Shown: one piece after another, positions 11,301-63,713 of the stretch
Numbering within the stretch: position 1 is the first letter of the stretch
Layout: the number at the start of each line of letters is the position of its first letter
DNA from: Albula goreensis
Lineage: Eukaryota; Chordata; Actinopteri; Albuliformes; Albulidae
Direction: 5' to 3'
NCBI GenBank assembly: GCA_022829145.1
Contig: CM040745.1
Coordinates: 37,196,841-37,260,840, forward strand
DNA: 64,000 bases
Position numbers and translations under genes: made by a program
The notes under the pieces: generated by a model
What the model was told of the DNA's origin: nothing
The model's input: only the letters and a program-made list of their open reading frames with translations
Databases searched by the model: none

Positions 11301-14300
11301 GAGCCTTTTCCTGAAATGTTTGTCTTTATGTATGTTCATTCACCAAACCTGAAACGGGGTTAGGCTGGGAAACGGGTGGGAGATCATAGAATTTGTCGCT
11401 TATGGATGAAACGAAAGTCCCAAGATGGAGTTTTACTTTATCATAACACCAGAATTCATCAGGCTAAATGCTAGAGCACGCTGTGTCCATATTGACCTTG
11501 TACGAATTCCTGTAGTCACTGTTTGTTTGTCTCAGTGAGAATTTTCCTCTGCACTGTCCGAGCTGCCTGTGAGCACGTTTCACTTATGGTGAAAACCCAA
11601 TGGTCCATTCTAATCGTCTCTAGTTCAAAACGGTGCACATTTAAAACAAAATTAATTTCAAGCACCAGGAGTGGGCGCTAGAGAGCGATGAGGCTCACAA
11701 CCTGTTAGACCGGCTTTCCCCTTTTTCATTCCCTGGCAAGACTGAGCCAATTGTTGCCTCGCCAGTGCGGACCTTTGGCCATAGCCGGTGGCAACACTGG
11801 AGAGAGTTGACCTTTCGGTTGAATGGCTCATATCTGCCTGCAAAACAAGTGTCTTCACTGCTTGAACCGCCAGAGGCCCCAAAAAACATCTTTTGGCTTA
11901 CAATGACATCCATCCACAGTGCTGGAACACATAGACTCTTTTTGAGGGGGGAAAAAGATAAAGATTATGCACAGATGAAAAGGCTATATCTCAGTACCTG
12001 AGCCGCCAGACAACAGGCCGAGGAGAGACTGTACAGATTCCATTAGCTGCTGCTGTTGTCTCTGGAGGATTGTGTTATTGGTGCTGGCTGTGTGCAACTG
12101 CCTCTCCAGAGCCTCAATGGCTTCCGTCTGGCGCACCACCAGGGCCTGCAGCCGCTCCTTCTCCTCCCTCATGTCCTCCAGCTCCATCCGCTGCCGCGAC
12201 TCCAGCACCTGCACCTTCTTCTCCAGGCGGCTGGCGGAAAAAGAGGCGACGGTCACGCAAGAGCTGAGCTAAGGCTAACGGAGCTAACTTTGTGGGAGCT
12301 TGTGGAGTGCAACATTGTGACAGCGTACAGTTGTGATCTGGACCAGTTGACCATACAGCTTTGCTGGAGATTTGTGTAGGGCTGGTAAAGTCACATGATT
12401 GTGCTGTAGCTGGGTGCTTTCTGCAGCCAGGAAAGGCCAAAACCTAGGCCCTGGTTTTCCTCTACAGAAAATGTGTAGTGTTTTTCCAAGAATGCCAGGT
12501 ACACACATTCTCTAATAGCTATAAATGTTCAACGCCACGTATGAACTGTTTTGATGCTATATAATTGACTCAGAATGCATCTGCATTTTGTGTACAATAA
12601 TTGTAAAATAGGAAATTCACATGATGATAATAGTGAAAGGATTCTAATGGTACTGATATTGTAAAGAACATAGTAGGCCTTATTATCAGTCATCCACACA
12701 AAGCACTTTATTAGCATCTCAGAAAAACATTTTTGATGTTAAAAATGCCAAAGTATTTTAGCAGTTTTCCTGCAGACATATTTAGACTGGGTGGTTCACT
12801 GAGACAAAACATATCTTTGTTTGGAAAAATGATTTGGTGGATATAAGAAAAACATAAAATACATGTTGACATGGAAATACATGAAAATGATCTATTCTTA
12901 AGTCTTAATGTAGGGGTTAAATTAAGATAAAAGAGAAACGGCATGAGTGTTGCCAGCAGCAGCGATCAGTTGACAGACAGATGAATGTTTTCATGTACTT
13001 TACTTAGCTTAGCTAAGTTAAACATATGTGATATAGAACATATGCTCTCAATAAAAATTGCAACATTTTTAAGCAGACTTCAGTTGAGACAAATGATAAA
13101 ATATTGCTCCTTATCATTGTTATAACTGAAAATCTCTGACTTGCCTGTTAGCTAGATGTTGTAGTTAGTAGTGCGATAGTTAATAGAAGTATTTGTTTCT
13201 GATTCTAGGCTAAATTAAGTTATGAAAGGATTTAAAATGAAATCCTGTTGTCAGCTGTTTGAACAGTTGAAGCAATTTTTACAATAAGTAATTGTACATG
13301 TGTATATATGCAATTATTCCTTCATAAGCAAACAGATCAAAATTCATTAGATTTCATTTGTTAAATTTCCCTTTAGACTCTCATATTTATCTGAAGTGAG
13401 AGAGGAATTTTACCCTTCATCAAGGCATTGGTTTTTCCACAGATTAATCATTGCCACTGCTTGTGTCATAATAATTACTTTTTCACTAACTTTTGTGTTA
13501 TGTTACCTGTTTTTGTCTTGTAGTTTCAAAATCTCAGTGACTTGCATCAACAGCTCCTTCTCCAGTTTGTTTGTAGATAGCGAGTTCTCCAAAAGCTGGA
13601 TCTCAATTCTCGAGGTCTGGTTCATAACCTAAAATGTGCATGCACACATTAACAAATAAATCCGTACAATCACACTTGGAAAGGAACAGAGAGAGGGGAG
13701 AGACAGAGGACAGAGAAAGAGTGATAGAGGCTCCTTTAGAAACCCATTTCTATTGCTGTTAATTTATCTCAAGGAATGTATACTAAACGGTTATTCACTG
13801 CGTGGTTTGTTGCTAATAGAGATGATTAGTAATGTGAGCTGATCTATTTCCTGGCAAGAGACTGCAGTGAATGTGAAAGAGACTCAATACTGCAAAAATG
13901 TTTTGATATTTTCGCTATGCTAAAACAGTTGGCTATTTAAGACCTACAGGACATTGTTTGGAAGTATAACTGAAATAGTGCAGCAGTGATCCATTTCTGG
14001 TCTACTTGTTTTTCATAAACATATGTTTCTATACTGACAGTTTAAGTTTGTTAAATGTCATTGTTCCAGCAATTGTTCTAGAATGTCTTACCCACGCTTA
14101 CGTGCCAGATTTAGAAATGCCTGTTGCACATGTTACATTTTTTCAAATGCAATTTTAGTGACACGATTTTTGATTGGAGCAAACAAACGACCTCAACCAA
14201 TAACATGCTCTCTTTCTCTTTTTGCACCAGCGAAACAGTTTCATAAATATTAAATGCTTCAATAAATTAGGCTCTTAATCGAGCATAACTCATTCCATCC

Positions 14301-41245: not shown

Positions 41246-43539
41246 AATATGTGGTCACCACCAAAAGTACTGCACAATTTAAAATTCCAATGCACAGCTT
41301 CTACAGTTCCAAAGACATACAGTTCAAATAAATGCTTTGAAGAACTTTTCATGGAACACTTAAAAGCCAAACGGAGCAGAAACATATCCATCCTCAATTA
41401 CATCAGAAACCACGGGGTGAGACATGGATAGAGTATGTTTAAGGCAGACATGCGGGCTGAGCGCGAAAAACATCTCCTGGAGGTTGAGGACCGTACATGT
41501 AACGTCACTTTTGGCAAATGGGCGGAAACCCTAAGTTAATGCTACCTGGGGCTCGGCGGTATCTCAAGCTGTTCTAAATGGGACATGCAATCTCGATCAC
41601 CCCGTCTTTGATGGCGCAAGACTTCTTTTCCAGAGAGTTGTTTGGTCCACAGCCATGACAAAAAAAAATAATCAGAACTTCAAATAGCTTCCTATGTATT
41701 CCCCTAAAATCAGTACTTCAATGAGAGGGCTGAAGAATCTGATATATACTTTTTGTGCCGCTCGCGATTTTAACTGAAGATCAGGTTAAAAGGTCCCTCC
41801 CACATCAAAAGAAGGACTCTTCTTTTGCAATGCCAGATATTGGTCTATTGAAACGAGCCTAATTCCAAGTCTGCCACTCAGCGTAACACTAAACAACACG
41901 AAAACTCAATGACCTCAGCAGTTTTTTATTATTTCTAATCATTCGAAAAATGATACTTGCTTAAAAGTTGTAGAAACGCAACTTCAAAAATGTTTTGTGT
42001 GTGCTCGTTAAACTGTTGTTTTGTTATTGCAAGTTAGTTACGGATCAGATGTTGTGTATCTTTTTCAGCCATGTGCTGTGATGGAAACATAGCCATTTCA
42101 ATGAATGCATTTAGCAGAAAATGAGAACCGCTTCAATTGCCAGGAGACCTGGATTTCAGTAATTCGAAGTCAGAAGCAAAACGCTCAATTTCCAGGCTTC
42201 AGAGAGGAAAGAGAAGAATGGAGGAATTCACCGGAGAACGTCCGCGGTGTTCCGTGATGACTGACGCCACCCACGTGCGCGCACAAGCCCTCCGCCGCCT
42301 CGCGGGGAGCTGGTGCTGACCCACAATGCCCCAGCGTTCAAGGGTTAAGCCTCCTCTGTCTATTAAGGTCCCGCATTCCTCGGTGCTATACCTGACCCAG
42401 ATCGCTGTCTGTCCTTTTCGACTTGGGAGGTGATAGAAGCAGCAGACAGGAACAACTACCCCCACCCCCACACCCCCGATTCGCCCCCCACAGCTCCGCT
42501 CCTCACATATTCAGCCTGTCTCAGACACAGCGCACATTCATGCCTTCAGCCGTTCTGTCTGCCCACAACTTCCGACAGACCGTCATACAAACGAACTACA
42601 CTACATTATTATTCTATGGCTAAACTAAAGTACCTTCTCGGTGGACCATCAAACATACAACCTACCCTATGTTATTTTTCTCCGGATAAAGCGCCTTTCC
42701 AATTGACAAACATATGCATAGCCGAGCATAACTAACACCATGTTATATATACAACACCAGAACAACTCTAGATGACGGTATATTTTTAAACAAAGATTCC
42801 GATCACGCCTCAGTACTGCTCATACTCAATCAATCACCGTACTTTTCAAAAGTAATATGAATTTAATGCGTGTAACTTAACCTTGTATTCACAAAATGTT
42901 TATATTTCCCACTTTTCTCAGATGATGAGCGACATCTTTACTTTAGTTATTTTTAATCAACTGTATTTGCATTACTTACGAAATGCTTATTGCCTCAGGT
43001 GCTATGCTAGTAAAGTAGTAATTGTTGCAATCTTACTACGATTGTTGTAATGATAATTCCAGTAAGTAAACTCATTTTAGATTCTCACTTACTAACTAGA
43101 GGTTTAACTCACAGCAGTGTGAGGGAAAGATCACCAACACCAGTTCATATGTCTCTTTTCAGCCTGCAACTGCTTGTCTACACGTGCGCTGTCATTCTGC
43201 CGCCTGAGCATAACCAGGGAAACAGTCTGCCCTTACCTTCTGCAGCCACTGCGTGTTGTTCTCCATGGCGATCTCCAGGTGCTGCAACTTCCTGGCGGAC
43301 CCGTCCATGCCATTAGGCGGGGGCGCGTCACGCTGCGCTGCGTTGATGTTTCCGTAGTGATCGGCGCCCGCTCTACAGCTCTCCACCTCTGGCAGGATGA
43401 AGGTGTAGCTGCAGTGGCCGTGCTGCACGCGGTGGAGCCGCTTCCGACCCTCCCCGCCTCGCCTCTGACCCCCGCCGCCCCCGCCGCCCGCCGCCGTGCC
43501 CGCCACCAACACGCTCAACGCGAGAAACGCCAGCCTCAT
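2135..43539 (-). CDS. angpt4: Angiopoietin-4-like secreted TIE2 ligand (angpt4), 3' end missing
   Basis: This is a secreted angiopoietin, whose family binds the endothelial receptor tyrosine kinase TIE2 (TEK) through a C-terminal fibrinogen-like domain. Seven coding exons join in frame with GT/AG borders and phases 0,0,2,1,0,0,2. Seen: signal peptide (1-17), glycine run (18-24), super-clustering region with CSYTFILP near residue 43, coiled coil over exons 2-4 (about 102-271), linker, then a fibrinogen-like domain starting FRDC at about 280. The reading stops at about residue 399. By comparison with the roughly 500-residue family, about 100 residues lie left of the window. ANGPT4 is preferred over ANGPT1/2 because of [37 protein letters not shown] and LESRQRMEL; the exon 2 and 3 coiled coil is less diagnostic. 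N-glycosylation sequons occur in exons 1-5. Which paralogue it is remains an inference; that it is an angiopoietin is near certain. Confidence 0.88.
3560..3835. repeat. Fragments of dispersed fish repeats
   Basis: The string CAGGTGTACCCAATCAAGTG at about 3569 resembles the terminal motif of a widespread vertebrate repeat (GTGTACCTAATAAAGTG type). The segment near 3780-3830 (GTGGGGACATGTCCCCAGCG) resembles another common fish repeat. Family names are not assigned. Confidence 0.5.
4803..4978 (+). mobile_element. tRNA-derived SINE
   Basis: A tRNA-like head has a box A-like TTAGGGAGCTGG and box B GGTTCAGTTCC at 4839-4849. It is followed by a body (TAAATATCCACCAG) and a tail like GTAAGTTGCTCC...GCATCTGCTGAATG. 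This order is typical of common teleost tRNA SINEs that share a tail with a partner LINE. Confidence 0.85.
7459..7560 (-). CDS. angpt4: angpt4 exon 6: fibrinogen-like domain, [10 protein letters not shown] segment
   Basis: This exon is 102 bp or 34 codons: [18 protein letters not shown], then [16 protein letters not shown], the most conserved signature of fibrinogen-related domains. It lies between acceptor TTGGACGCAG and donor ATG|GTAAGC, both phase 0. FCDMQS fits ANGPT4 best. The usual acidic ED/EN before GS is VN here. Confidence 0.95.
7561..8206 (-). other. angpt4 intron 5
   Basis: 646 bp. The right part (about 7960-8110) has repeated AACGTT-containing words (AACGTTCATAAAACGTTG) like a dispersed fish repeat. 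Nothing else is seen. Confidence 0.75.
8207..8319 (-). CDS. angpt4: angpt4 exon 5: linker and start of fibrinogen-like domain
   Basis: This exon is 113 bp. After a short linker (VTLPREQK) it reads [11 protein letters not shown] and then [16 protein letters not shown], the opening of the fibrinogen-like domain. The cysteine here pairs, in known family structures, with the FCD cysteine of exon 6. The linker looks a few residues shorter than in mammalian ANGPT1. Acceptor GCTACCAG, donor AAAG|GTAAAT. NIS and NMT are glycosylation sequons. Confidence 0.93.
8687..8766. repeat. Short tandem repeat of ATCACATTCTAAGT
   Basis: Four near-copies of ATCACATTCTAAGT occur, with GACCGATAATATA-type spacers duplicated between them. 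Confidence 0.85.
9500..9806 (-). mobile_element. SINE-like dispersed repeat, copy 1
   Basis: About 300 bp, closely similar to 11664-11966 in the same orientation. Shared words include CAGGAGTGGGCGCTA, TGAGCCAATTATTGCCTCG against TGAGCCAATTGTTGCCTCG, and CAAGTGTCTTCACTGCTTGA. It is related to the SINE copies near 17.4-17.7 kb and 45.2 kb, so it is read as a diverged member of that family. Confidence 0.75.
11664..11966 (-). mobile_element. SINE-like dispersed repeat, copy 2, beside exon 4 donor
   Basis: Second long copy of the family. On the minus strand, CGGCTATGGCCAAAGGTCCG followed by GAGGCAACAATTGGCTCAG aligns with the equivalent part of the 17.4-kb copy. It ends in an A-rich stretch about 32 bp from the exon 4 donor at 11996-11997. 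Confidence 0.75.
11998..12230 (-). CDS. angpt4: angpt4 exon 4: distal coiled coil
   Basis: This exon is 233 bp, reading [18 protein letters not shown] onward through heptad-rich residues to LLGLLSGGS, between acceptor CCGCCAG and donor [22 protein letters not shown] resembles the ANGPT4 paralogue more than ANGPT1 or ANGPT2. NNT is a glycosylation sequon. It ends in phase 1. A SINE-family copy ends only about 32 bp beyond its donor. Confidence 0.92.
12231..13506 (-). other. angpt4 intron 3
   Basis: About 1.3 kb of AT-rich sequence with no exon or clear repeat that I can identify. Confidence 0.8.
13507..13628 (-). CDS. angpt4: angpt4 exon 3: coiled-coil segment
   Basis: This exon is 122 bp, starting [20 protein letters not shown] and continuing KLEKELLMQ to KLQDKN before donor CAG|GTAACA. 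The acceptor is TTTTAG. It ends in phase 2 and the split codon becomes serine with exon 4. Length and phase match the third coding exon of angiopoietins. Confidence 0.93.
14135..14245. repeat. Dispersed repeat shared with 25185-25300
   Basis: AATTTTAGTGACACGATTTT...GATTGGAGCAAA...AACCAATAACATGCTCTCTT here matches AATTTCAGTGACATGATTTG...GATTGGAACAAA...AACCAATCACATGCTCTCTT at 25.2 kb in the same orientation. It is a repeat family of unknown class. Confidence 0.75.
14422..14471. repeat. TG/CA inverted repeat (hairpin-forming microsatellite)
   Basis: TGTGTGTGGGTGTGTG is followed, after CATAGATATATA, by its exact complement CACACACCCACACACA. A single GGG/CCC interruption sits at mirrored positions in the two arms. 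Confidence 0.9.
14476..14672. mobile_element. MITE-like element with imperfect 55-bp terminal inverted repeats
   Basis: The left end GTGTCAAACTCCAGGCCTGG and the reverse complement of the right end, GAGTCAAACCCAGGTCCAGG, align over about 55 bp. The CAAACTCCAGGCCTGGAGGG word is common in fish repeats. Exact ends and target duplication were not settled. Confidence 0.65.
14759..14798. repeat. 20-bp tandem duplication next to exon 2 donor
   Basis: TGTGACGCATTCGGCCAGTC is followed directly by TGTGACGCATTCAGCCAGC, ending about 5 bp from the exon 2 donor. Confidence 0.85.
14804..14959 (-). CDS. angpt4: angpt4 exon 2: first coiled-coil segment
   Basis: This exon is 156 bp or 52 codons, beginning [10 protein letters not shown] after acceptor CTAACTCCAG and ending VVEAQ before donor GTACCG. 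It matches the angiopoietin coiled coil ([22 protein letters not shown]) closely in sequence and exactly in length for the second coding exon of the family. HNQT gives a glycosylation sequon. Both borders are phase 0. Confidence 0.93.
15309..15324. repeat. (AC)8 microsatellite
   Basis: Short uninterrupted AC run in angpt4 intron 1. Confidence 0.9.
17395..17735 (-). mobile_element. tRNA-derived SINE, same family as 9.5, 11.7, 27.9 and 45.2 kb
   Basis: On the minus strand the head reads ATCTCCGAGTGGCTCACACT (box A region, 17715-17735) and GGTCGTTTGAGTCCCAGT (box B region, 17655-17672). A body follows with CTGCACTAGGGAACCAGCAA and CGCTCTCTAGTGGCCAC. This order supports a tRNA-derived SINE and defines the head of the family. 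Confidence 0.8.
18351..18400. repeat. (CT)12 plus GT-rich microsatellite
   Basis: (CT)12 at 18351-18374 runs into GTTTGTGTGGGTGTGTGTAT. Confidence 0.95.
23478..23708. mobile_element. MITE with about 60-bp terminal inverted repeats
   Basis: Left arm AAAATAAAAAGTTC...GTTCTTCGTTTGTCCCTCC aligns with the reverse complement of the right arm, AGAATAAAAGGTTCCTTCAG...GTTCTTTGTTTGTCTCCCT. No transposase is encoded, so it would be a non-autonomous DNA transposon. The AAAAGGTTCCTTCAGGTTCTTTG type is a known abundant fish repeat. Confidence 0.8.
25185..25300. repeat. Dispersed repeat shared with 14135-14245
   Basis: Second copy of the family containing GTGACATGATTTGTGATTGG and AACCAATCACATGCTCTCTT. Confidence 0.75.
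26098..26446. mobile_element. Non-autonomous DNA transposon (MITE), CCGAAAT-type ends
   Basis: Left end CCGAAATTGCGTACT (26104-26118) and the reverse complement of the right end, CCGAAATCGCATACT (26420-26434), match at 13 of 15 bases, and similarity continues inward (GTAGGC/GCCTAC). There is no coding capacity. Ends of this kind are common in fish and usually placed with hAT-like elements; the class is an inference and I could not fix the target duplication. Confidence 0.75.
27892..28015 (-). mobile_element. Truncated copy of the SINE family
   Basis: GCTGACCAGTAGTGGTCGCT followed by AGAGAGTAATGAG, then CAACGAATTGCTGG further on, matches the 9.5/11.7/17.4-kb copies. The tRNA-like head is missing. 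Confidence 0.7.
29768..29876. mobile_element. Palindromic MITE, GGGCCAGTTTCCC ends
   Basis: About 109 bp. GGGCCAGTTTCCCGGGCATG at the left is mirrored by CATCGGGGAAACCAACCC at the right, and GGAAGCCTAG by CTCGGCTTAG inside. It matches the widespread fish palindromic element whose arms carry GTTTCCC and GCCTAG words. Confidence 0.8.
39345..39480 (+). repeat. Dispersed fish repeat (CATCCATTTTCTGTA type)
   Basis: The words TCTATCCATCCATTTTCTGT, GGTCTGGAACACATCCCA and GCCATTGGGTGAAAGGCAGG, followed by CACCCTGGGCAAGTTGCCGG, follow the order of a very common fish interspersed repeat. Its class is not assigned here. Confidence 0.7.
39960..40059 (-). mobile_element. tRNA-derived SINE fragment
   Basis: On the minus strand GTGTGATATAATGATTAGCA (box A region) is followed by GGTTGCGGGTTCAATTCC (box B, 39993-40010). 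This is a tRNA-like SINE head with a short degraded body. Confidence 0.75.
41213..41237. repeat. (AC)12 microsatellite followed by AT run
   Basis: Uninterrupted AC repeat, then ATATATAAATAT. Confidence 0.97.
43237..43539 (-). CDS. angpt4: angpt4 exon 1: start, signal peptide, super-clustering region
   Basis: This exon encodes 101 codons and ends exactly after WLQK, the conserved exon 1/2 border of angiopoietins, at donor AAG|GTAAGG. The start is the ATG at 43539, which gives a hydrophobic leader [17 protein letters not shown]. Seven glycines follow, then basic residues and [13 protein letters not shown]. Two cysteines (about 43 and 55) sit in the N-terminal region that lets family members form higher oligomers. 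NNT near residue 94 is a likely glycosylation site. The glycine run comes from a CCG/CCC-rich stretch and is probably length-variable. Transcribed leftward, followed by a 28-kb intron. Confidence 0.9.
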
Positions 43540-43560
43540 AGCTAACGCCGGCCGTCACTC
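43290..43560. promoter_or_regulatory. CpG-rich segment over angpt4 exon 1
   Basis: CpG is far denser here than in the surrounding AT-rich DNA, and GC-rich codons make up exon 1. This is consistent with a CpG-island promoter reaching from the 5'UTR into exon 1. I saw no convincing TATA box on the minus strand just upstream of 43540, and the transcription start cannot be fixed. Confidence 0.55.
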
Positions 43561-53407: not shown

Positions 53408-55794
53408 GCCCTCTGCAACTAAAACATCTAGAAGCATTTATTAGGCCACTCTCTTGTATGTTTATGTTTTTGAGGCAGTTCGTTATTAGCTTTTAGCATG
53501 TGGAAGCATAAATGGATGGTAGAGGTCCCCTGGCACTGTGCTGTAAAGAAGGGGCTGGTTAAATATTTCTCACTGTAATGAAAAGCAGCCCTGAACACAG
53601 AGGCCAAGCTAATTAAAATACCCTCCACCCCCCTACCGCCCCTTAACTCCCACACCCCCTCTTTAAGAACACAGAATAGTGGGAGGGAAGGAGTGGATGG
53701 GGAGGGGCGGGGTGATGGTGTGGGGGGGCGGTGGTGCGTGTGAACAACTGCGCCACAGACCTCCACTGAGGAGGCCACAAGGTCAAAGGTCACCGCTGCA
53801 ATCTGACTGGGGACAGGAAGTCGCAACAGTCGGCTTTTCTGAGAACGAGAGAAAGAGACAGTAAGAGCGAGCAACTGTCCCTACGGCCTCATGGGAAAAA
53901 AGCTGGAGGGGAATGTCATCCGTGACCTCAAGAAAGAGGGAAAAAAAAAAAACAAGAGGTACTGAAGTGTCTCTTTCCAGAATTTTCTATGTATGCATGT
54001 TTATATTCAGGGTCCAGTGTGGGTGTGCTTATGTGCAAGTCACCAATCTCTGTAATAAAATATATGCTCCCTACATCAACAGGACAGCTCTTCAAAAGAT
54101 TAAATGCTTCAGTGATATTTGAACGGAGTGCATGTTGACTCAAAAAAATTGAGGAGAAGAATTCTGGACAGCTGCTATTTCAAGTACTACCCATTCCTGC
54201 ACTATTATTTTATTTTTCAAAGTCGTAAAATTTGAACTTTTTATGTGTCCACAGTGTGAATTTATATCCCCATTGTTTATACACTCATTGTGCAAACAAC
54301 CATGACCATTCTTTCCATCTGAACTGTCAGAATAGTATTGTATATTATTACATTATTATATCTCACTGGCTATGATATATGATGCTGTATATTATGTTGT
54401 TATTACCTGGCCACCCCAGCCCCCACCTGCTTGGTTCTGCTTTACAGTCATCAGGGGAAAGGGTTTGACTTTGATGCCTGGTCGTCATTTAACTCGGTCA
54501 TGTCGTTTCTGTGCCTTTTTCGCAGACTTGCAGATCTCTGAAAAGCACAGCCAAAAAAAATAACGCAATGACACTTACATATCAATAAACATGTAAACCA
54601 AAAGCATGCGTTTTGACAATGACAATTTGATTATACCACCTGCAATCAAATCAAGCATTGCACTCGTTAGGAGTGTCTATTCGTTTCGCTTGAAAGACAG
54701 AGAGACGGACAACTGCCTATAAAACTGATGTAAGAAATGCATTTCTTAAATAAATACATGTAGGCATGGTCGCATTATTTTGTTACGTACTGCACATCAT
54801 CTTAAACTTTTACCACAGTCACAAAGCTGGACATACATACAAGGTATTATGGGCTATGAGGCAGTGGTGGCTAGTGAACTCAAAACAGGGGATGAACAAA
54901 CTTTACCTTTAAACCCATCGTTATGTTCAACCTGTTCCCATTTATCCCCCTTAATTAAAAATAACACAAGTAATTCATGGAGTAATCAACATCAATTCAC
55001 GTAAATACATTAAAACATCCACGGATATAACAGACATAACACTAGTTTGCAAACAATAGCAATTCTATCACAAAATGAAATTGGTAACCATTGACTCCGT
55101 TGACGTCAGCTGGTGTTAAATCTGCGAATGATTTATTTTATTGTTTATCATGAGGAATAAATAAGAATAGGCTGAATATAATGATAGGTCTAAAACTAAA
55201 GTTTGTTCCTCCCCTGATTTGAGCTCACCAGGCGACACAGGTCTGATGATAAAGCCAGTGAAACAGAACAGCATGTGTCAAACATGGAGGATGCAGAAAA
55301 ATGGTCCTCTCCATGTGACGACATCTAACCACTGAGACCGCGGGACAGCAAAACTGTCTTGGCAGGACAGTGTGGAACGCATTAAAAAAAAACCACAAGT
55401 AAATGTAAGTTTGTATATTCCATCCCATCTATATTATTTTAACATCATTCAGTTGGCCAAAACCATGATCCAATATCACACAATTGTTGTCATGCCTTAT
55501 ATCGCTGTAATTATTGTGTCATTAAGTTGTTAAAAAGACAATGACCATGAACCAAACTAAACACAGTCACTTATTTTAGACTGCACTTTTGTGCATTTTC
55601 AGCCTAAGTCTCAAGTCTTTCAGTGTTGCGTTGCGAGGAAAATTTGAGCACAGGTCTCTCTTAGGACATGGCAACTTTTTAAGGTTATATGTTATTCTAT
55701 TTTAGAATGAAACAACCACATTCCCAAGGACACATCTCCTTGTCTTACGTAAATGACAAAAAAGTCAGAAAAAGAAAATGATGTCGCAATATAA

Positions 55795-55855
55795 TGTCTG
55801 TTTTGATTGAATTGCATATGCCTTTAAGTGCATTTGACTGAATCTCTGCCAATAT
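55795..55855. mobile_element. MITE end, same family as 51.2 and 56.4 kb
   Basis: GTCTGTTTTGATTGAATTGC followed by ATATGCCTTTAAGTGCATTT is the inverted form of the 56395-56420 end. Only one end is recognised, so this is a fragment. Confidence 0.6.
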
Positions 55856-56359: not shown

Positions 56360-56622
56360 TGGCCTTGACCCAATCGAATACGCTGAGTCTCTTTAAGCGC
56401 ACATGCAACTCAATCAAAACAGACGTTTGTGTTTTTAAGGGCGTGTGCTCTTCTCTTTTAAAATGAAAAGCACATATTCCAAATGGCGTGATCGCTCATC
56501 TCCAACAAATATAGTATTGTCGATGAAATCATCTCAAAGAAACACATGAGGTAATGGAAAGTCTTGATTAGACTGAATCAGAAATGCCTTTAAAGTCTAT
56601 TTGATTGAATCCCAGCCTTTCT
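56360..56622. mobile_element. MITE with about 45-bp inverted ends
   Basis: Left end CTTTAAGCGCACATGCAACT followed by CAATCAAAACAGAC. The reverse complement of the right end reads GATTCAATCAAATAGACTTT then AAAGGCATTTCTGATTCAGT. There is no coding capacity. Confidence 0.7.
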
Positions 56623-57235: not shown

Positions 57236-58879
57236 CTGGTTAAAATTGTCCAATTCTAGTCTTGTATGCAGCCTCTTTTATAACACTTGTCACTGAGATG
57301 GACAAGTTTTAATTCATGGCCGTCCCAAAATAAACCTGAGCTTCTTACCATCGTATCCTTAGTATGAAAGTAGAGGCCCTGTCGTGTGGCCAATCACAGG
57401 TAACGTGTGAGCACAGCATGCTACGTCACGTTATGAAACGAAGCAAAACATTAGCCATACTCTGCTAAGATCACAATGAGCCATCCTGCCATCCATTACC
57501 TACCAAAGATTGATGTCAACGTCAACTGGAAATGCTAAATTAGCTATTGTTCTAGAAGGAAAATGTATAACACGACGACATGAGTGTGACATACTGGTAC
57601 GCTGTAAGTGGCAGGGGGCTGGCTAAAGAAGGCTACACGTGACTCCATATGGAGCGGCCCAATGCCTGCCTAGTGTTAAGCCATTGGCCATTAATCCTCA
57701 GAAATGCTAACATGCTTCCTGCCGCTAACAACACAGCTCTCTCTGGGGGACTGGAATTTATGGGCTTATTGCGCAATTGGAGCATGAATTTTCTGTCTCT
57801 CGAAAGTCTGTCACCCCAAGGAAAGGGGCAACTCCTTAGTGGTTCTTTACTCGCAAGCATATTTTGGTGACTTCAGTCCCTTGGAGAGATGTCTGCTGTA
57901 CATTATGTCTTGACAAACAGCACGGCGATTCTGTGTTTCTGCAGATGTATGGGCGAGAGCCCCATGGGGCACAGAGAGAGGACGCTGAACCGGTAAGGAC
58001 GAGGTCATGCCTCTGGCAAGACTGGGGGAGAGGGGGGCGTCTCTCTCCGTCAAGTGATATTTAAGCGTATAAGTCATTCGTTACACGCAATGGAGGAACA
58101 TGTTGACCTCATTCTTTGCAAAATGAAAGTACATTTATCTCATCTGTCCAAATCCTGTGCCATAGTGCTCTCTCCCAGCTCGTGGTCTGAGCATTTAGAA
58201 TGGTCCCGATGAAACAGTCTTACACACAAACCACTGAAACTAATGCAAAATGAAAAAAAAAATGCAGAGGCTGTGACCCAATCAAATGACCTTCGCATCT
58301 CAAAATAGACATAAAATTACAGCATAATTTTCTTTGAGTATTTTCTGTTTTATTGAAGACATGCAAACATATACTTTGGAATGTGTTCCTTTTCAATTCC
58401 ATTCTAAAATAGCTTAGCATATACCCTTATAAGGACTAAAGTCTGTTTTGATTAAACTGATTATGTTTTTTTCATAAATGTGCTAAATAATAAAGGAAAT
58501 GTGAACTATCCCATTGGTAAACATGAAAGGTCTGCGTTAACTTCTTACATATCGGTTTCCTGATGTTATCGATGTTTACGCAACTTTGTTTTCTGCGTCC
58601 AGTTTTCTGTGCCTCGGCCTCAGAAAAGTTTATTGTTGAACTTGAAACAGTTGTTTGGCAGAGGCGTTTCCAAGGAGATCCATACATAATTACCCATAAA
58701 CAGCCAAATCATGCGTGTCCATTTCGGTCACCTGACCTCTTAGTCCCGCCTCCTCCATATCTTCCACATCTCCTGCCCAAAGTTATGAGCTAATTCTGTT
58801 CGGCCTTTGCTGACTCATCACTGTCCTACTGTTGGTTTGTCAGCATCATTTCTTCTGCATTGTTTTAGTTTAAGTACAG

Positions 58880-59040
58880 TATAATGGTTTGGGAGCTGAC
58901 CTTGTAAATTGAACCCACCCAGGGGACTGTTATTGGACTTTTCCGCCAGGTTCCTCACCAAAAATAGCTTATGTAAATATCCAGCTGTGTAAACAGATTG
59001 TATGTCAACTGTGTGAAGTCTTCTGGATATGAATGCCTAA
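58880..59040 (+). mobile_element. Degraded tRNA-derived SINE
   Basis: AATGGTTTGGGAGCTGACCT (box A region), a damaged box B zone, then TAAATATCCAGCTGTGTAAA and a tail GTCTTCTGGATATGAATGCC match the order in the 4.8-kb SINE. Confidence 0.7.
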
Positions 59041-59474
59041 TATATATATTTTGTATTTGGTAGTAAAGTCATACCTGAAACATTGTTGCATCAGTTCTTT
59101 TTGTAACCTATGTTGCATGTACCAGGTAGAGGGACACACAGAGTAGATTTTGTGGGATTTTTCTTGCAGGAAAGAAACTTTGAAAGGAGGAGCAGCAACT
59201 ATCTGTGGCGCTGTTAATGAACGAACTCAACCGTTGATGTGTCAATAAAAAAGAAAAATGCATGCTGAGTAGAAAACATGCTGCTTTTCAACGCAAACCA
59301 TAAATGTGTGAGTTTTTGAAGTTATGGGGCGGTTTATTTGGAGTCTTTAACAATGGAACATGACGCTGTTTGCATCTTTGAGGTTCTGTTGTGCGTATGC
59401 AAATACAGAGTCTCTACCCAGGATTTCCTGGATGCAAATTGACAAATGCAATGGATTCAAACTGGCCAATGAAC

Positions 59475-59950
59475 ACCTTGCCACTCTCCTGTCCATTGCA
59501 GCTACTGCTCACAGTCAGTGCACAGAAACACTGGGAGGCGGGGCAAGCTGTTTGTGCAAACATATTGAAATTAATTAGGCTTGATTATATTTTGACATTT
59601 ATATAAGGGGCGCTTTCAATGTCCTTATTGATTGTTTTAGCTGGGTTTTTTTTAGTTCAGACAAAGCTGTAAATTTATACATACCAAAAAAAATTGTTGA
59701 TTGAATATTTAAATGGTCCATTGACTGATTTAAAGATACCACAAGTGTTGAGATGATGTGAAAGTCACGTACCAAGAATTACATTCGTCAGAAAAATGTG
59801 ATGAGACAACTTCACCCTGCAGAGCTGCAGAGCCAAAAGCACCCTTTTATTCTGAATGTACGAGCATGCCCTCTTTCTTATCGGTTTAAGAGTTCCTCTT
59901 TCTTCAAAATGGTGTCAAAAAAGCACCAGCCTAAGAGAGAGCTACAGAAA
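59475..59950 (-). pseudogene. Inverted, decayed copy A of the cathepsin promoter-to-ATG segment
   Basis: Read on the minus strand, ACTCTTAAACCGATAAGAAA (59874-59893) matches the cathepsin promoter word ACTCTTAATCTGATAAGAAA (63227-63246) at 18 of 20 bases. CTCTCTTAGG (59930-59939) also matches 63202-63211. Further on come GGCTCTGCAG, like exon 1, and an exon 2-like stretch TAGCTGCAATGGACAGGAGA with ATG at 59496. The spacing from CTCTCTTAGG to ATG is about 443 bp, against 386 bp in the gene. Similarity to the cathepsin coding sequence fades about five codons after the ATG, so it is not a working cathepsin. It could be a relic of a duplicated gene 5' end, or part of a repeat family that also gave rise to the gene's leader. 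Confidence 0.6.
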
Positions 59951-59989
59951 TTTTTCACAGGGTGGCAGCAATACCTACATCAACGCGTT

Positions 59990-60300
59990 ATCGCAATCAG
60001 CTCTGCCACTCTCCTTTCCATTGCAGCTACCGCTCTCAGTCAGAGAACAGAAACAGACAGGCAGAGGCTAGCTGCTTGTGCAAACGTAATGAGATTAATC
60101 AGTTATGATCATACAAAAAAATTACGTTATGAGACATCAAAGCACTCGCCTGCCACACTCTCCGAAGATGCAGCCAGTTCACCGCACAGCTTGTAGGCCC
60201 TTTTAATTTTGTATTGATGAGCCATAACTATTTTTTATTGGTCAACAGCGTTTTTGAATGTTCCTCTTTCACTAAAGATAGCACCATATTGAGAGAAGAC
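59990..60300 (-). pseudogene. Inverted, decayed copy B of the cathepsin 5' segment
   Basis: A 30-base stretch at 60006-60035 is identical, in reverse complement, to 63574-63603 of the cathepsin gene, from 14 bases before the ATG to 13 bases after it; the ATG lies at 60019-60021. Similarity reaches back through the leader (CAGCTAGCCTCTGC, TTTCTGTTCTCTGAC) to TCATTACGTT. Reading then hits a stop codon a few codons after CTGATTG. Weaker promoter-like (about 60280) and exon 1-like (about 60170-60200) similarity lies upstream. Copies A and B are head-to-tail, with ATGs 525 bp apart. Confidence 0.6.
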
Positions 60301-60867
60301 CAGAGATGTACCCTTATTCAAAACTGAAATGAAACTTTTATGCATAGGACATTTTGTAAATTCATGTTTCCTTACCTTGCACACCAAAACATCAAGAGAA
60401 GCACCAAACTCTTGTCTGTTTTTAAACTCAAGCATCCTTTGTGTTTGACCACAACCAACAGCCATATCTGTTCATCGTCAGGAAAGACGAGAGAGAATAA
60501 CCAGAGCACATGCTCCACATACAAAAACACAGCTCTATTTAAATAGCCTAATCTGTTTTTAGTGCTTTTCTGCTCCTGAAAACATGTAGACTTTCTGGCT
60601 GTTGCTCTAGCCTCCAGTAACAGTTCAATTTGTCTATTCAGTATGGCTTTCTGGGAGTTCTTACAGACAGATATGACACAATAATCTCATTTGTGGAATT
60701 TATTTTTAAAATGATTCCACACATAATTTCAGACTTCTTCTGAATACTGGTCCCTTAGTTTGGGCCTTGTCTGCATAAGCCAGGATCTGGCTGTGCTGCA
60801 CTGCAGCCATTTTGGATTCAGTAGAATTCATTTTTCAGACGACGAAATGCATTTGAAAGGGTTTATT

Positions 60868-61423
60868 TGTCAGGGTTATTGCTGTGTTTGTTATATTGTT
60901 TTCGGTTTTGTTGGACTGTGTTCGTGTGTTTTTATCTCCTTCGTTTCCCCGGTCCATGTGCTTTTGTTTTCATTTTCCCTCGTGTCTGCCCCTCCTTCCT
61001 CATTACCTGATTGTCGATTTGCTCCACCTGCCCTGTTCTCACCTGTGACTCGTTTGCTCGTTAGTCCTCTGTGCATTTATACCCTGCCTTGTCCTTTGTT
61101 CTGTGCGAGTTTGTCTCAGTTTGTTGCCACTCTGTTGCGCCACAAGCCTTTTTTTTTCTCTTTCTTCTTTTTTTTCTTTTTTTTTTGTACTGTTGCCCTG
61201 TTTGTTTTCTGTTTTTTTGTACTGTTGCTGTGTTTTCTGGTTTTCAAACTTCACCTGACTTTTGACCATTCTTGTGGATTGTGTTTTTGTGCTTTTGCTG
61301 AGACTCCCCAGTCATGACCATTGCCTGTTTTTTTGACTATGTTTCTGGATTTTGGACTTTAGCTGCTGTTAATAAAATCCTTAAGAATTATGTCCGCATC
61401 TGAGTCCTACCTGAGCCTTGACA
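60868..61423 (+). mobile_element. Solo LTR of a retrotransposon, 556 bp, with 5-bp target duplication
   Basis: The element starts TGTCAGGG and ends CTTGACA, giving TGTCA...TGACA inverted termini. It is flanked on both sides by TTATT (60863-60867 and 61424-61428). A polyadenylation signal AATAAA lies at 61371-61376, and a TTTATACCCTG word near 61075 could be a TATA-like box. There are no internal gag/pol genes, so it is a solo LTR left by LTR-LTR recombination. The length, ends and 5-bp duplication fit Ty3/Gypsy or BEL/Pao better than a DNA transposon. The superfamily is not decided. A long open frame inside it is not taken as a gene. Confidence 0.85.
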
Positions 61424-61428
61424 TTATT

Positions 61429-62920
61429 GAATGTAAGAGTTGGACATCTGAACATGCTTTAGATCTTGGGCTTGGAGTCCTAAGGGGGTGACTCTATGTT
61501 GGACAGCCGAGTCCAACATTTTGGAAAATACATTTTGAAAGTTTGAGATGGGGGGTATGTGGCATTTTTACATCTGAGATGTGTATTCTGGTTTGACTGG
61601 TGGAGTATATTAGGTGAGGGTTGTCTGAAAAATATATCACCCAAACTTTTGTTTTAACGCCAAACTGTGACAAGAAAATGACTCCAATGTCATTTCATCT
61701 AAAACTAAACTAGTAAGGAGTTAACTAGCACATCCATTTTGTATTTTAATTTTTAGGATAGAATATAATTAACAATGTTGTCTGTAGCAAAACTTGTTTT
61801 CTTTTAAGTTCTTTTCCAAGTATAACGGTAGTTTGCACACTTCACTGTGTAAACCGCAGGTGCTGGTGACGTGCAAGTGCCAGTAATCGCTGGCTGTTTA
61901 GTTCTTTAAAAACCTCTGTGGTTCTCTTAGGTCGGTCGACCAGAAGATCACAATGACATGATGCGCTGGCGAAATGTGGCCTCGTACACAGATTAGATCG
62001 ATTACGCCACTTGTGGTCATAAGGGTGGGAGAACCCTGGGTTATTTAGGGTTAAAAGTCCCTGGTTCATTTAGGGACAAACAAGTCCCGACCCAGCAGGT
62101 TTAAAACTACAACAGCTGATATGGTTAAAATGTTCTTTATTGCACAAACGTATTAAAATACAAAGGATAGTTAGGTCACACTCATAGTACATTGTTGCAC
62201 CAAAGAATTAAGTATTGCACTGGCCCTTATATTGCACCAATCGATTACATATTGTACCAGATGATTAAATATTGCACCAGCCCATATGTTGCACTAAAAT
62301 GTAAGATATTGCACAAGCCCATATATCACACCAACTATTAATTATTGCACTAACTCATGACCTGAGCTTCCCAAAAGAAATTAAAAGGAAAATAGGTTTT
62401 CCCACACTACCATCAATTAAGGCACATTACTCCATACATCATTATTGACAACACATATTCTTATTCTTGGTCATAGAGGATAAACACAGAATAAAAATCT
62501 AAGTGGGAAAAACAGTGGTGCCCCCCTTCCCCCCCAAAACTTGGATGAACACCACCGGCAGAGCAAGTCACCTTCTTTCACTCTTCCCTGTCCCAGGAAT
62601 CAGGGTCCAAATATACTTCAGCCACCACCCTGAACTATTCTGTTTGTCCCCGCAACAATAATCTTGTCTGTAGCCCTGTTCCCCCTGGAACTCGACCCTC
62701 GCCGAACAAATCCTTAATTACCGTACAGGTGAACTTTAAAAGTCACGTGCGACCGGTAGGGCGGACACACCACTGACGTTTTTCCCCATCTTCCTAAAAC
62801 CCAGCAGGACCCTAAGCATCACATCACTCGAATGTCATAGAGCAAATAAAACAGAGCACCAAGGGGAAACTGTTCGTATTGCATATGTACATGTACATGC
62901 TCAGTGCAGAGGTCTGGGCG
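61429..62920. other. Intergenic DNA between the solo LTR and the cathepsin promoter
   Basis: It contains a 37-bp tandem array (62192-62350). On the minus strand a CAATAAAG word lies just outside the array (about 62137-62144), like the 3' end of a retroelement. No exon was recognised. Confidence 0.6.
62192..62350. repeat. Degenerate tandem array, about 37-bp unit (ATTGCACCAGCCCATAT)
   Basis: Units begin near 62213, 62250 (shortened), 62270 and 62308, with ATTGCACTGGCCCTTATATT, ATTGCACCAGCCCATATGTT and ATTGCACAAGCCCATATATC. Confidence 0.8.
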
Positions 62921-63052
62921 TTTTAGAACCGTTTTCTTGTTCCCGTGTGGAGGGATTTTAAAAAAACTTGTGTACTGTGGATGTGATCCTTTTCAAAACT
63001 GACGCGAAAAAGTGTGTTTTTGAAAATACCCGGCTTTGTGTAGACAAGGCCA
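62920..63052. mobile_element. Fragment of a MITE (TTTTGAAAATACCCGGC type)
   Basis: GTTTTTGAAAATACCCGGCT then TTGTGTAGACAAGGCC matches the end of a common fish element with CGTTTT/AAAACG arms. GGGCGTTTTAGAACCGTTTT at the left could be the other end. Moderate support only. Confidence 0.5.
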
Positions 63053-63199
63053 CGGACCAAGCCAGAACCTGCATGAGGATGGCGGCGCTCTCAGATAAGG
63101 GAAAAAAAGCTGCTATGACAGTTATAGCGGTGACGGACTTAACACCGCGGTACACTTCCTATTACTGTGGTGTGGTGGTGCTATTAAAAGCCCCAGTGG

Positions 63200-63290
63200 T
63201 TCTCTCTTAGGGTGGTGTTTTTTAACACTCTTAATCTGATAAGAAACAGCGCGCGCTTATAAATCCTGAATACTGTCTCTACTGGGTCTG
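63200..63290 (+). promoter_or_regulatory. Core promoter of the cathepsin-like gene
   Basis: A TATA box (TATAAAT, 63258-63264) lies about 25-30 bp before the likely start of transcription (about 63285-63292). Upstream are CTCTCTTAGG and ACTCTTAATCTGATAAGAAA (which contains a GATAAG GATA-factor core), both also present in the inverted copies. Confidence 0.65.
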
Positions 63291-63325
63291 CAGCAAAGCT
63301 AAAGTTCTTGGCTTCATCCACTGAG
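63288..63325 (+). other. Non-coding exon 1 of the cathepsin-like gene
   Basis: It lies just after the TATA box and ends at a strong donor CTGAG|GTGAGT (63325/63326). Cathepsin S and K genes in vertebrates usually have a non-coding first exon. The 5' end is estimated. The following intron would end at the acceptor TTGCACAG (63531), giving exon 2 from 63532. Confidence 0.6.
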
Positions 63326-63587
63326 GTGAGTTATTAGTTATTAATTTTTTTAATTAATTTTATATTTCTATATTTTCAGATTGTTTGATGCAAAAATCCA
63401 TTTAGACGATCGGTAAGAACGTTGGTTGTGTCCCTGACATGCATGTCAGCTGTAAGGAGGCAAAGTATTGCACGTTTTTTTTGTCCGATACTCTAAGAAT
63501 CATGACGAATTCATTTCATTACGTTGCACAGACAGCTAGCCTCTGCGTCCGAGTATTTCTGTTCTCTGACCGGGAGCGGTAGCTGCA

Positions 63588-63713
63588 ATGGAAAGGAGAG
63601 TGGTGGTGCTGATTGTGTGTGCTGTTGGGGTCTCTTCCCTCCATGCGTTGGATCACACCTTGGACTCTGTGTGGAAGGACTGGAAGAGTCTGCATGGTAA
63701 AGAGTACACTCAG
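63588..63713 (+). CDS. Cathepsin S/K/L-like cysteine protease, first coding exon (partial gene)
   Basis: This exon encodes 42 residues of a papain-family (C1A) lysosomal cysteine protease precursor, which is made as an inactive proenzyme and digests proteins in lysosomes. Seen: hydrophobic signal peptide MERRVVVLIVCAVGVSSLHA, then LDHTLDSVWKDWKSLHGKEY, the start of the I29 inhibitor prodomain with its W-x-x-W (W29, W32) and HGKEY. The exon ends TQ at donor CAG|GTAAAA in phase 0, the same place as the first coding exon of cathepsins S and K. The start is the first ATG of the exon (exon begins about 63532). The catalytic Cys, His and Asn lie beyond base 64000. Cathepsin S, K or L cannot be told apart from 42 residues. 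Two inverted relics of its 5' end lie about 3.5-4 kb upstream. Confidence 0.82.

What the first reader, a model, noticed from the sequence alone, without database searches (positions are those of the whole stretch)
59475..60300. Two inverted, head-to-tail relics of the cathepsin promoter and start-codon region
Thirty bases at 60006-60035 are the exact reverse complement of 63574-63603, spanning the cathepsin ATG. A 20-base promoter word matches at 18/20 (59874-59893 vs 63227-63246). Order is kept: CTCTCTTAGG, GATAAGAAA word, exon 1-like, exon 2-like with ATG. Both copies lose similarity shortly after the ATG and repeat about every 525 bp. So only the promoter-leader part has been copied and inverted, while the protein part has not. 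It may be a remnant of a cathepsin tandem cluster, a divergent promoter array, or a repeat that was adopted as the gene's 5' end.
Basis: seen in the sequence. Interest (0 to 1): 0.72.

Follow-up and report, generated by a model that had tools for sequence, protein, structure and literature searches.

The report
Dead 5' ends of cathepsin genes
The two inverted look-alikes beside this cathepsin gene are most likely the leftover front ends of sister cathepsin genes that lost their protease parts, and they belong to a small gene family whose front and protease parts have been reshuffled.

Summary
Relic B (59467-59965, minus strand) and relic A (59994-60357, minus strand) carry promoter and intron pieces and the beginning of the ATG-bearing leader exon of cathepsin gene G (63181 onward). 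Similarity ends about 28 bases after the ATG in A and 16-30 in B. The 932-Mb genome was held. The relic region matches 8 other places, all 5' ends of cathepsin genes; the G leader finds 10 places: 8 genes and the two relics. So this is gene debris, not a dispersed or adopted repeat. Relic A is the counterpart of gene gA and relic B of gene gB, a head-to-head pair in a cluster on C20. Leaving out a repeat inserted at 61930-63180, the C5 spacer runs collinearly into G's promoter as into gB's, so relic A is the dead head-to-head partner of G; relic B is a second gB-type front end behind it. G has a gB-type front end (split support 99) but a gA/g6-type protease part (100), so front ends and bodies have been reshuffled. 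In the C20 cluster the leader exons are (nearly) identical while protease exons differ between classes, pointing to gene conversion (inferred).

The parts
59467..59603 (-). Relic B, leader part: end of intron 1, 5' UTR and start codon (ATG at 59496 on minus strand), similarity ending 16-30 bases after the A of ATG; frame reads MDRRVA, then unlike the signal peptide
   Evidence: 86% over 138 columns to gB leader C20:23390894-23391028; K2P 0.12 and translation
59825..59965 (-). Relic B, promoter part, with a CAGAATAAAAGG TATA-like word also present in g5, g6, h1 and h2
   Evidence: 73% by BLAST to gB promoter C20:23391109-23391242; gB-only profile hits 59950-59787 with 62 bits; alignment
59994..60113 (-). 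Relic A, leader part: 5' UTR and start codon (ATG at 60021), similarity ending 28 bases after the A of ATG; frame MERRVAELIAITR then stop
   Evidence: 83-92% to five C20 leaders by BLAST, 84% to G; translation. A profile match running to 59964 includes the first 28 bases and is not borne out beyond them (433/500)
60114..60357 (-). Relic A, promoter, exon 1 and shortened intron 1, counterpart of gene gA
   Evidence: 59994-60357 matches C20:23392778-23392409, 78% over 381 columns, E 2e-81; tree A+gA support 99
60562..60813 (-). Intergenic spacer of the head-to-head pair, gA side (two blocks, 60562-60674 and 60703-60813)
   Evidence: 87% and 76% to C20:23392376-23392265 and 23391823-23391725
60814..61423 (.). 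610-base insertion in the C5 spacer (its flanks are contiguous on C20); repeat nature not tested
   Evidence: C20 match goes from 23391725 to 23391721; genome search not answered
61424..61930 (.). Intergenic spacer, gB side, running into the start of G's promoter (promoter word about 61903-61930), with one stretch of about 90 bases not present at gB
   Evidence: 61424-61814 to C20:23391721-23391259, E 3e-67; collinear extension
61930..63180 (.). Fragment of a multicopy repeat (61930-61977 plus 62891-63180) with a second element nested in it (about 61978-62890), lying in the start of G's promoter between similar words of about 26 bases
   Evidence: 53 matches listed for 61815-63170, self included, 40 of 60 candidates scored; in 7 of 8 fetched copies the two outer parts lie within about 15 bases of each other, 1 of 8 shows only the right part
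63181..63326 (+). Promoter and exon 1 of cathepsin gene G (gB-type)
   Evidence: 61400-61930 joined to 63210-63330 aligns with the gB upstream region, score 501, best of 100 shuffles 52; split {G,B,gB} support 99
63498..63713 (+). Leader exon of G: 5' UTR, ATG at 63588, signal peptide and start of propeptide; the gene continues beyond the window to about C5 37263020

Best explanation
The stretch 59467-60357 holds the decayed 5' ends of two former cathepsin S/L-like genes. Relic A is the dead head-to-head partner of the cathepsin gene G: the same pair of diverging front ends with the same spacer between them exists on C20 as gB and gA, with G in gB's place and relic A in gA's. Relic B is a second gB-type front end, on the same strand as relic A and about 30 bases behind it. 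Both lack everything after the first few codons. The leader part stands out because it changes slowly in the living genes, while introns change on both sides. SHOWN: homology, partner assignment, spacer collinearity, restriction to cathepsin loci in the genome searches, no recognisable protease exon on that strand. INFERRED: that whole genes once stood there; that the leader exons of a head-to-head pair, being near-identical inverted repeats, let promoters and bodies be exchanged (by inversion or strand switching), which would explain why G has a gB-type front end on a gA/g6-type body and why a gB-type front end lies behind relic A. Most likely the relics have no present function.
For: Relic query: 9 places in 932 Mb, the 8 non-self ones all at cathepsin 5' ends (genes placed). 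Leader query: 10 places, 8 genes plus relics A and B. A to gA E 2e-81, B to gB E 6e-38, spacer blocks in order. Spacer plus G promoter collinear with gB upstream. Trees: A+gA 99; {G,B,gB} against {A,gA,g5,g6,h1,h2} 99; bodies {G,gA,g6} against {gB,g2,g5,h1,h2} 100. K2P of A/gA 0.17, B/gB 0.12-0.175, spacer 0.14-0.15: the relics differ from their partners about as much as the spacer does. Best minus-strand match of the window to three recalled human cathepsins or G's exon 2, apart from relic A itself, has E 0.18.
Against: The two relics stop within about 12 bases of each other relative to the ATG, which two independent deletions would not predict. G's introns (K2P 0.21-0.23 to gA/g6) and promoter (0.24 to gB) are more diverged than spacer and relics (about 0.15), so G may be an older paralogue rather than the direct counterpart. 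The relation of B, G and gB is unresolved (support 47). Exon 7 of G is closer to h2 (76%) than to gA (72%). Window 1-59466 has 8 short matches (41-145 columns) to the C20 cluster, two of them to gB intron sequence at 23388400-23388588; I take them for repeats, untested. No relatives' genomes are held, so nothing can be dated or polarised by an outgroup, and no expression data exist here. Relic B keeps a TATA-like word.
Confidence: 0.88

Rival explanations
1. A dispersed repeat whose copies include the gene's 5' end (exaptation): the cathepsin gene adopted a repeat as promoter and leader.
For: Two extra copies beside the gene; another repeat has inserted in the same spacer.
Against: 9 and 10 places genome-wide, self included, all at cathepsin 5' ends or the relics, against 53 listed matches for a repeat in the same spacer with the same tool. 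The leader peptide aligns with recalled human CTSS from Met 1.
Confidence: 0.02
2. The relics are live alternative leaders or a divergent RNA gene sharing a bidirectional promoter with G.
For: Head-to-head layout on two chromosomes; relic B keeps CAGAATAAAAGG; relic A keeps most of gA's promoter region.
Against: Relics differ from their partners about as much as the spacer; frame of A is 13 codons, frame of B is 49 codons but unlike the family after six residues; no downstream cathepsin exon recognised. No transcript data.
Confidence: 0.07
3. Leader fragments copied by template switching or gene conversion from live genes, never whole genes: an inverted copy of the gB-spacer-gA cassette was made at C5, with relic B and relic A as its seams.
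For: Relic A ends about 30 bases from the start of relic B's promoter (59994 vs 59960-59965), G combines a gB-type front with a gA-type body, and both relics stop near the same codon.
Against: B and G are less alike (81%; score 76) than each is to gB (86-90%; scores 151 and 124), and the trio is unresolved; B's loss of its body would still need a further deletion.
Confidence: 0.3
4. Assembly artefact (misjoined or duplicated contig).
For: Inverted and tandem similar blocks within 4 kb.
Against: The relics differ by about 8-22% from each other and from the other copies compared, so they are not one sequence placed twice.
Confidence: 0.01

Closest known systems
Truncated (duplicated, non-processed) pseudogenes in a multigene family
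   Same: Homology to the parent gene including promoter and intron (so not retrocopies), loss of most of the coding part, location next to a family member
   Different: Two 5'-only remnants ending near the same codon, one of them still holding its place in a head-to-head pair
Head-to-head gene pairs with homogenised parts, e.g. silkmoth chorion genes (recalled; PMC4639761 seen only as a search listing with the start of its abstract)
   Same: Diverging paralogues around a spacer, pseudogenes in the cluster, signs of gene conversion (recalled)
   Different: Here the near-identical part is exons 2 and 3 and the protease exons diverge; promoter activity untested
Fish cathepsin L/S expansions (PMC13095802, PMC9409823: passages seen)
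   Same: Duplicated cathepsin genes, including a tandem duplication of ctsl.1B in carp
   Different: The passages seen do not describe 5'-only relics, leader-exon identity or exchange of front ends

Membership tests
Cathepsin L/S-like gene family (source of the relics) | Papain-type Peptidase_C1 exons in the source genes | tested here: met
   PF00112 above its cut-off at C5:37261847-37262143 and at the C20 genes
Cathepsin L/S-like gene family (source of the relics) | Assignment to cathepsin S rather than L or K | tested here: inconclusive
   Exon 2 of G prefers recalled human CTSS (E 5e-7; CTSL 0.003), the active-site exon prefers CTSL (E 1e-30; CTSS 1e-26)
Non-processed truncated pseudogene | Homology covers promoter and intron, not just exons | tested here: met
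   A to gA over promoter, exon 1, intron 1 and leader; B to gB over promoter, parts of intron 1 and leader
Non-processed truncated pseudogene | Coding sequence disabled or missing | tested here: met
   Similarity stops 16-30 bases after the A of ATG; no recognisable cathepsin exon on that strand of the window
Non-processed truncated pseudogene | Not expressed and not under selection | not testable with these tools
   No transcripts and no related genomes; divergence like that of the spacer is only indirect support
Dispersed repeat / transposable element | Many copies at unrelated places | tested here: not met
   8 of 8 non-self places at cathepsin 5' ends; counts are lower bounds by the tool's own note
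Bidirectional promoter pair | Two diverging transcription units around one spacer | tested here: inconclusive
   Layout met for gA/gB (ATG to ATG 1.83 kb) and for relic A/G (3.57 kb with insertions) by sequence; transcription not testable

The most novel reading that the evidence does not exclude
The family is built of a constant leader cassette (exons 2-3, kept near-identical within a cluster by gene conversion) and variable protease bodies. Because head-to-head neighbours carry the leader as inverted repeats, the promoter-spacer-promoter segment can flip or be copied between them, giving protease bodies new promoters; relics A and B and the gB-front/gA-body gene G are the scar of one such event on C5.
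Probability: 0.3. Interest if true: 0.6.

Novelty: new member of a known kind. Interest (0 to 1): 0.38.

Why it matters
The relics themselves are ordinary gene debris. They matter as a marker: with the C20 cluster they show that front ends and protease bodies of these cathepsin genes have separate histories. In the C20 cluster exon 2 is one sequence in 5 of 5 genes and exon 3 has two versions in 5, while exons 4-7 have 5 versions in 5. If head-to-head leader repeats let promoters be exchanged among proteases, that is a simple way to rewire expression, and it can be tested in long-read population data.

Tried and rejected
Rejected: a 525-base tandem unit (only the leader part keeps the period; promoter spacing is about 358). 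Rejected: dispersed repeat. Rejected: inversion of the spacer relative to G's own promoter, my first reading; once the inserted repeat at 61930-63180 was recognised, spacer and G promoter proved collinear with gB. Rejected: sequence shared by A and B after their truncation points (375/500). Rejected: a weak continuation of relic A to 59964 (profile match includes the strong first 28 bases; beyond them 433/500). Remains of gA/gB bodies left of 59467: 8 short matches between window 1-59466 and C20:23375001-23410000, none in a recognised cathepsin exon, two in gB intron sequence; taken for repeats without test. Tried without result: scans of genome contigs and viral contigs (prokaryotes and viruses, so of little weight) for the leader word, 0 matches; Pfam scan of ten frames, one of them G's 42-residue exon, no family over its cut-off. 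Paper searches, seen as listings with starts of abstracts, in which I saw no description of 5'-only cathepsin relics or leader homogenisation; of PMC13095802 and PMC9409823 only passages were seen. Rows dropped: g2 from the 5'-flank tree (long insert); g1 and exon 8 from the body tree (missing exons). A crude joined model of G's coding sequence had wrong exon edges and is not used; only its last-exon comparison is.

Full report
WHAT WAS CLAIMED.

IT IS THERE. A self-comparison of the window gives 59994-60109 against 63615-63499 (84%, E 7e-28) and 59481-59586 against 63603-63498 (81%, E 3e-20). The promoter blocks 59848-59893 and 59918-59960 match 63227-63272 and 63181-63223 in reverse complement. 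In dinucleotide shuffles the G-B promoter, G-B intron, G-B leader, G-A leader and A-B leader scores were each reached by 0 of 200; the G promoter against the sequence upstream of relic A was not significant (154 of 200), nor was G exon 1 against relic B's presumed intron region (127 of 200). A profile made from the G and B promoters finds a promoter in front of relic A, at 60306-60183, with 18.1 bits; the best score in 30 shuffled windows was 6.6 and in the reversed window 6.1. The 525-base period is true only of the leader part.

THE GENE. The peptide at 63588-63713 aligns weakly with the start of procathepsin L in the solved-structure library (E 0.018) and with recalled human cathepsin S from its first residue (E 5e-7). 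Beyond the window the gene continues with propeptide-like and Peptidase_C1 exons to about C5 37263020. Whether it is best called S, L or K is not settled. Its last exon carries a one-base insertion relative to gene gA, so G itself may be damaged, or the assembly may hold an error.

NOT A REPEAT. The window is C5:37196841-37260840 of a 932-Mb genome. The relic region finds 9 places: itself and 8 others, all at the 5' ends of cathepsin genes: gA, gB (two pieces), g2, g5, g6, h1 and G (genes placed). The G promoter-leader finds 10 places: eight genes (G, gA, gB, g2, g5, g6, h1, h2) and the two relics. The tool skips very common words and scores only the best candidates, so these counts are lower bounds; but the same tool listed 53 matches for the repeat in the neighbouring spacer.

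WHO THEY ARE. On C20 at 23.377-23.407 Mb lies a cluster of cathepsin genes that I call g1, g2, gB, gA, g5 and g6; gB and gA stand head to head, ATG to ATG 1.83 kb. Relic A matches gA continuously over 59994-60357 (78% by BLAST over 381 columns, E 2e-81), relic B matches gB (86% over the leader, 73% over the promoter), and three further blocks at 60562-60674, 60703-60813 and 61424-61814 match the spacer between gA and gB in order. In the 5'-flank tree A joins gA with support 99 (g2 left out because of a long insert).

THE HEAD-TO-HEAD PARTNER OF G. The stretch 61930-63180 is a fragment of a multicopy repeat with another element nested inside: in 7 of 8 fetched copies the parts matching 61930-61977 and 62891-63180 lie side by side or within about 15 bases, and 1 of 8 shows only the right part. 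Similar words of about 26 bases flank it (about 61903-61930 and 63182-63209). When it is left out, the spacer runs into G's promoter and aligns, with gaps that include one stretch of about 90 bases present only on C5, with the region upstream of gB as far as the end of exon 1 (score 501; best of 100 shuffles 52). So G stands where gB stands and relic A where gA stands. Relic B is then an additional gB-type front end, whose promoter (from 59960-59965) begins about 30 bases beyond the point where relic A's leader stops (59994).

MOSAIC ANCESTRY. G's front end groups with gB and relic B (split support 99), but its protease exons 4-7 group with gA and g6 (100). By exon, G is 83% to gA and 66% to gB in exon 4, 81% and 73% in exon 5, 92% and 72% in exon 8; exon 7 is an exception, closest to h2 (76%; gA 72%). 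In the C20 cluster exon 2 (126 bases) is one sequence in 5 of 5 genes and exon 3 has two versions in 5, whereas exons 4-7 have 5 versions in 5; gA/g6 and g2/g5 are close pairs in their bodies (82-99% over the exons compared), and between the body classes exons 4-8 are 48-83% alike. Between gA, gB and g2 there are 0 synonymous differences at about 50 synonymous sites in exons 2-3, against dS 0.53-1.09 in exons 4-6. In 5 of 7 C20 pairs examined, part of intron 2 between the identical exons drops to 37-77% identity; in gA-g5 and g5-g6 the alignable intron stays at 85-98%. The pair h1/h2 at C20 12.48-12.49 Mb shows the same: identical exon 2, exon 3 99.2%, other exons 67-81%. Identity within clusters and less between them (exon 2 91-96%) points to gene conversion rather than constraint (inference).

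HOW IT MOST LIKELY AROSE (INFERENCE). A cathepsin segment with a gB-spacer-gA layout came to lie on C5. Its head-to-head leaders are inverted repeats. Recombination or strand switching between them can exchange which promoter serves which body; G, with a gB-type front and a gA-type body, is what that would leave. The bodies behind relic A and relic B were lost. Relic A stops just before relic B's promoter begins, which looks like a repair junction. Differences between relics and partners (K2P 0.17 for A, 0.12-0.175 for B) are like those of the spacer (0.14-0.15), as expected for sequence without function.

WHAT DOES NOT FIT WELL. Both relics stop within about 12 bases of each other relative to the ATG, unexplained by independent deletions. 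G's introns and promoter are somewhat more diverged from C20 (0.21-0.24) than the spacer and relics, so G may have a longer separate history. B and G are less like each other than each is like gB, and the trio is unresolved in the tree (support 47). Relic B retains a TATA-like word, so transcription cannot be excluded. No related genomes and no transcripts were available.

VERDICT. Observation confirmed, with corrections. The relics are new examples of a known kind, truncated non-processed pseudogenes in a gene family. The more interesting point, leader exons homogenised and front ends exchanged among diverging protease bodies, is supported by trees and exon comparisons, but its mechanism is inferred.

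Noticed in passing
C20:23381530, 23390921, 23392751, 23398033, 23403477 (L011-L013); h1/h2 at 12485351 and 12493974 (L016, L018): Leader exons 2-3 (signal peptide and start of propeptide) are identical or nearly so within each cathepsin cluster while exons 4-8 differ strongly between body classes; intron 2 is diverged in most pairs.
   Followed up: partly
C5 window-equivalent 66083-66183 (L009): Last exon of the window's cathepsin gene has a one-base insertion relative to gA, shifting the frame after the SWG motif; the gene may be damaged or the assembly wrong here.
   Followed up: partly
C20:23377086-23378168 (L011): g1 is the reverse case: exons 4 and 5 only, with no leader found in the 12 kb upstream and no exons 6-8 in the 3 kb downstream, and Ser in place of the active-site Cys.
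   Followed up: partly
C20:23381280-23381334 (L011): A second, partial copy of the leader 5' UTR lies about 170 bases upstream of g2's own, so duplicated leader pieces occur elsewhere in the family.
   Followed up: no
61930-63180: Multicopy repeat fragment with a second element nested inside (about 61978-62890), lying at the start of G's promoter between similar words of about 26 bases.
   Followed up: partly
60814-61423: 610-base insertion absent from the C20 spacer, with an AATAAA stretch near its right end; its genome search did not complete.
   Followed up: no
55677-55821, 56369-56490, 58300-58460: Short repeat family with copies in both orientations in the window and near C20:23379772-23379967; the first bases of 58400-59466 match many places.
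   Followed up: no
43195-43554: Minus-strand open frame containing [14 protein letters not shown].. that resembles the first exon of an angiopoietin (resemblance recalled, not tested; frame).
   Followed up: no
9503-9804 and 11664-11964: Direct repeat of about 300 bases, 86% identical.
   Followed up: no
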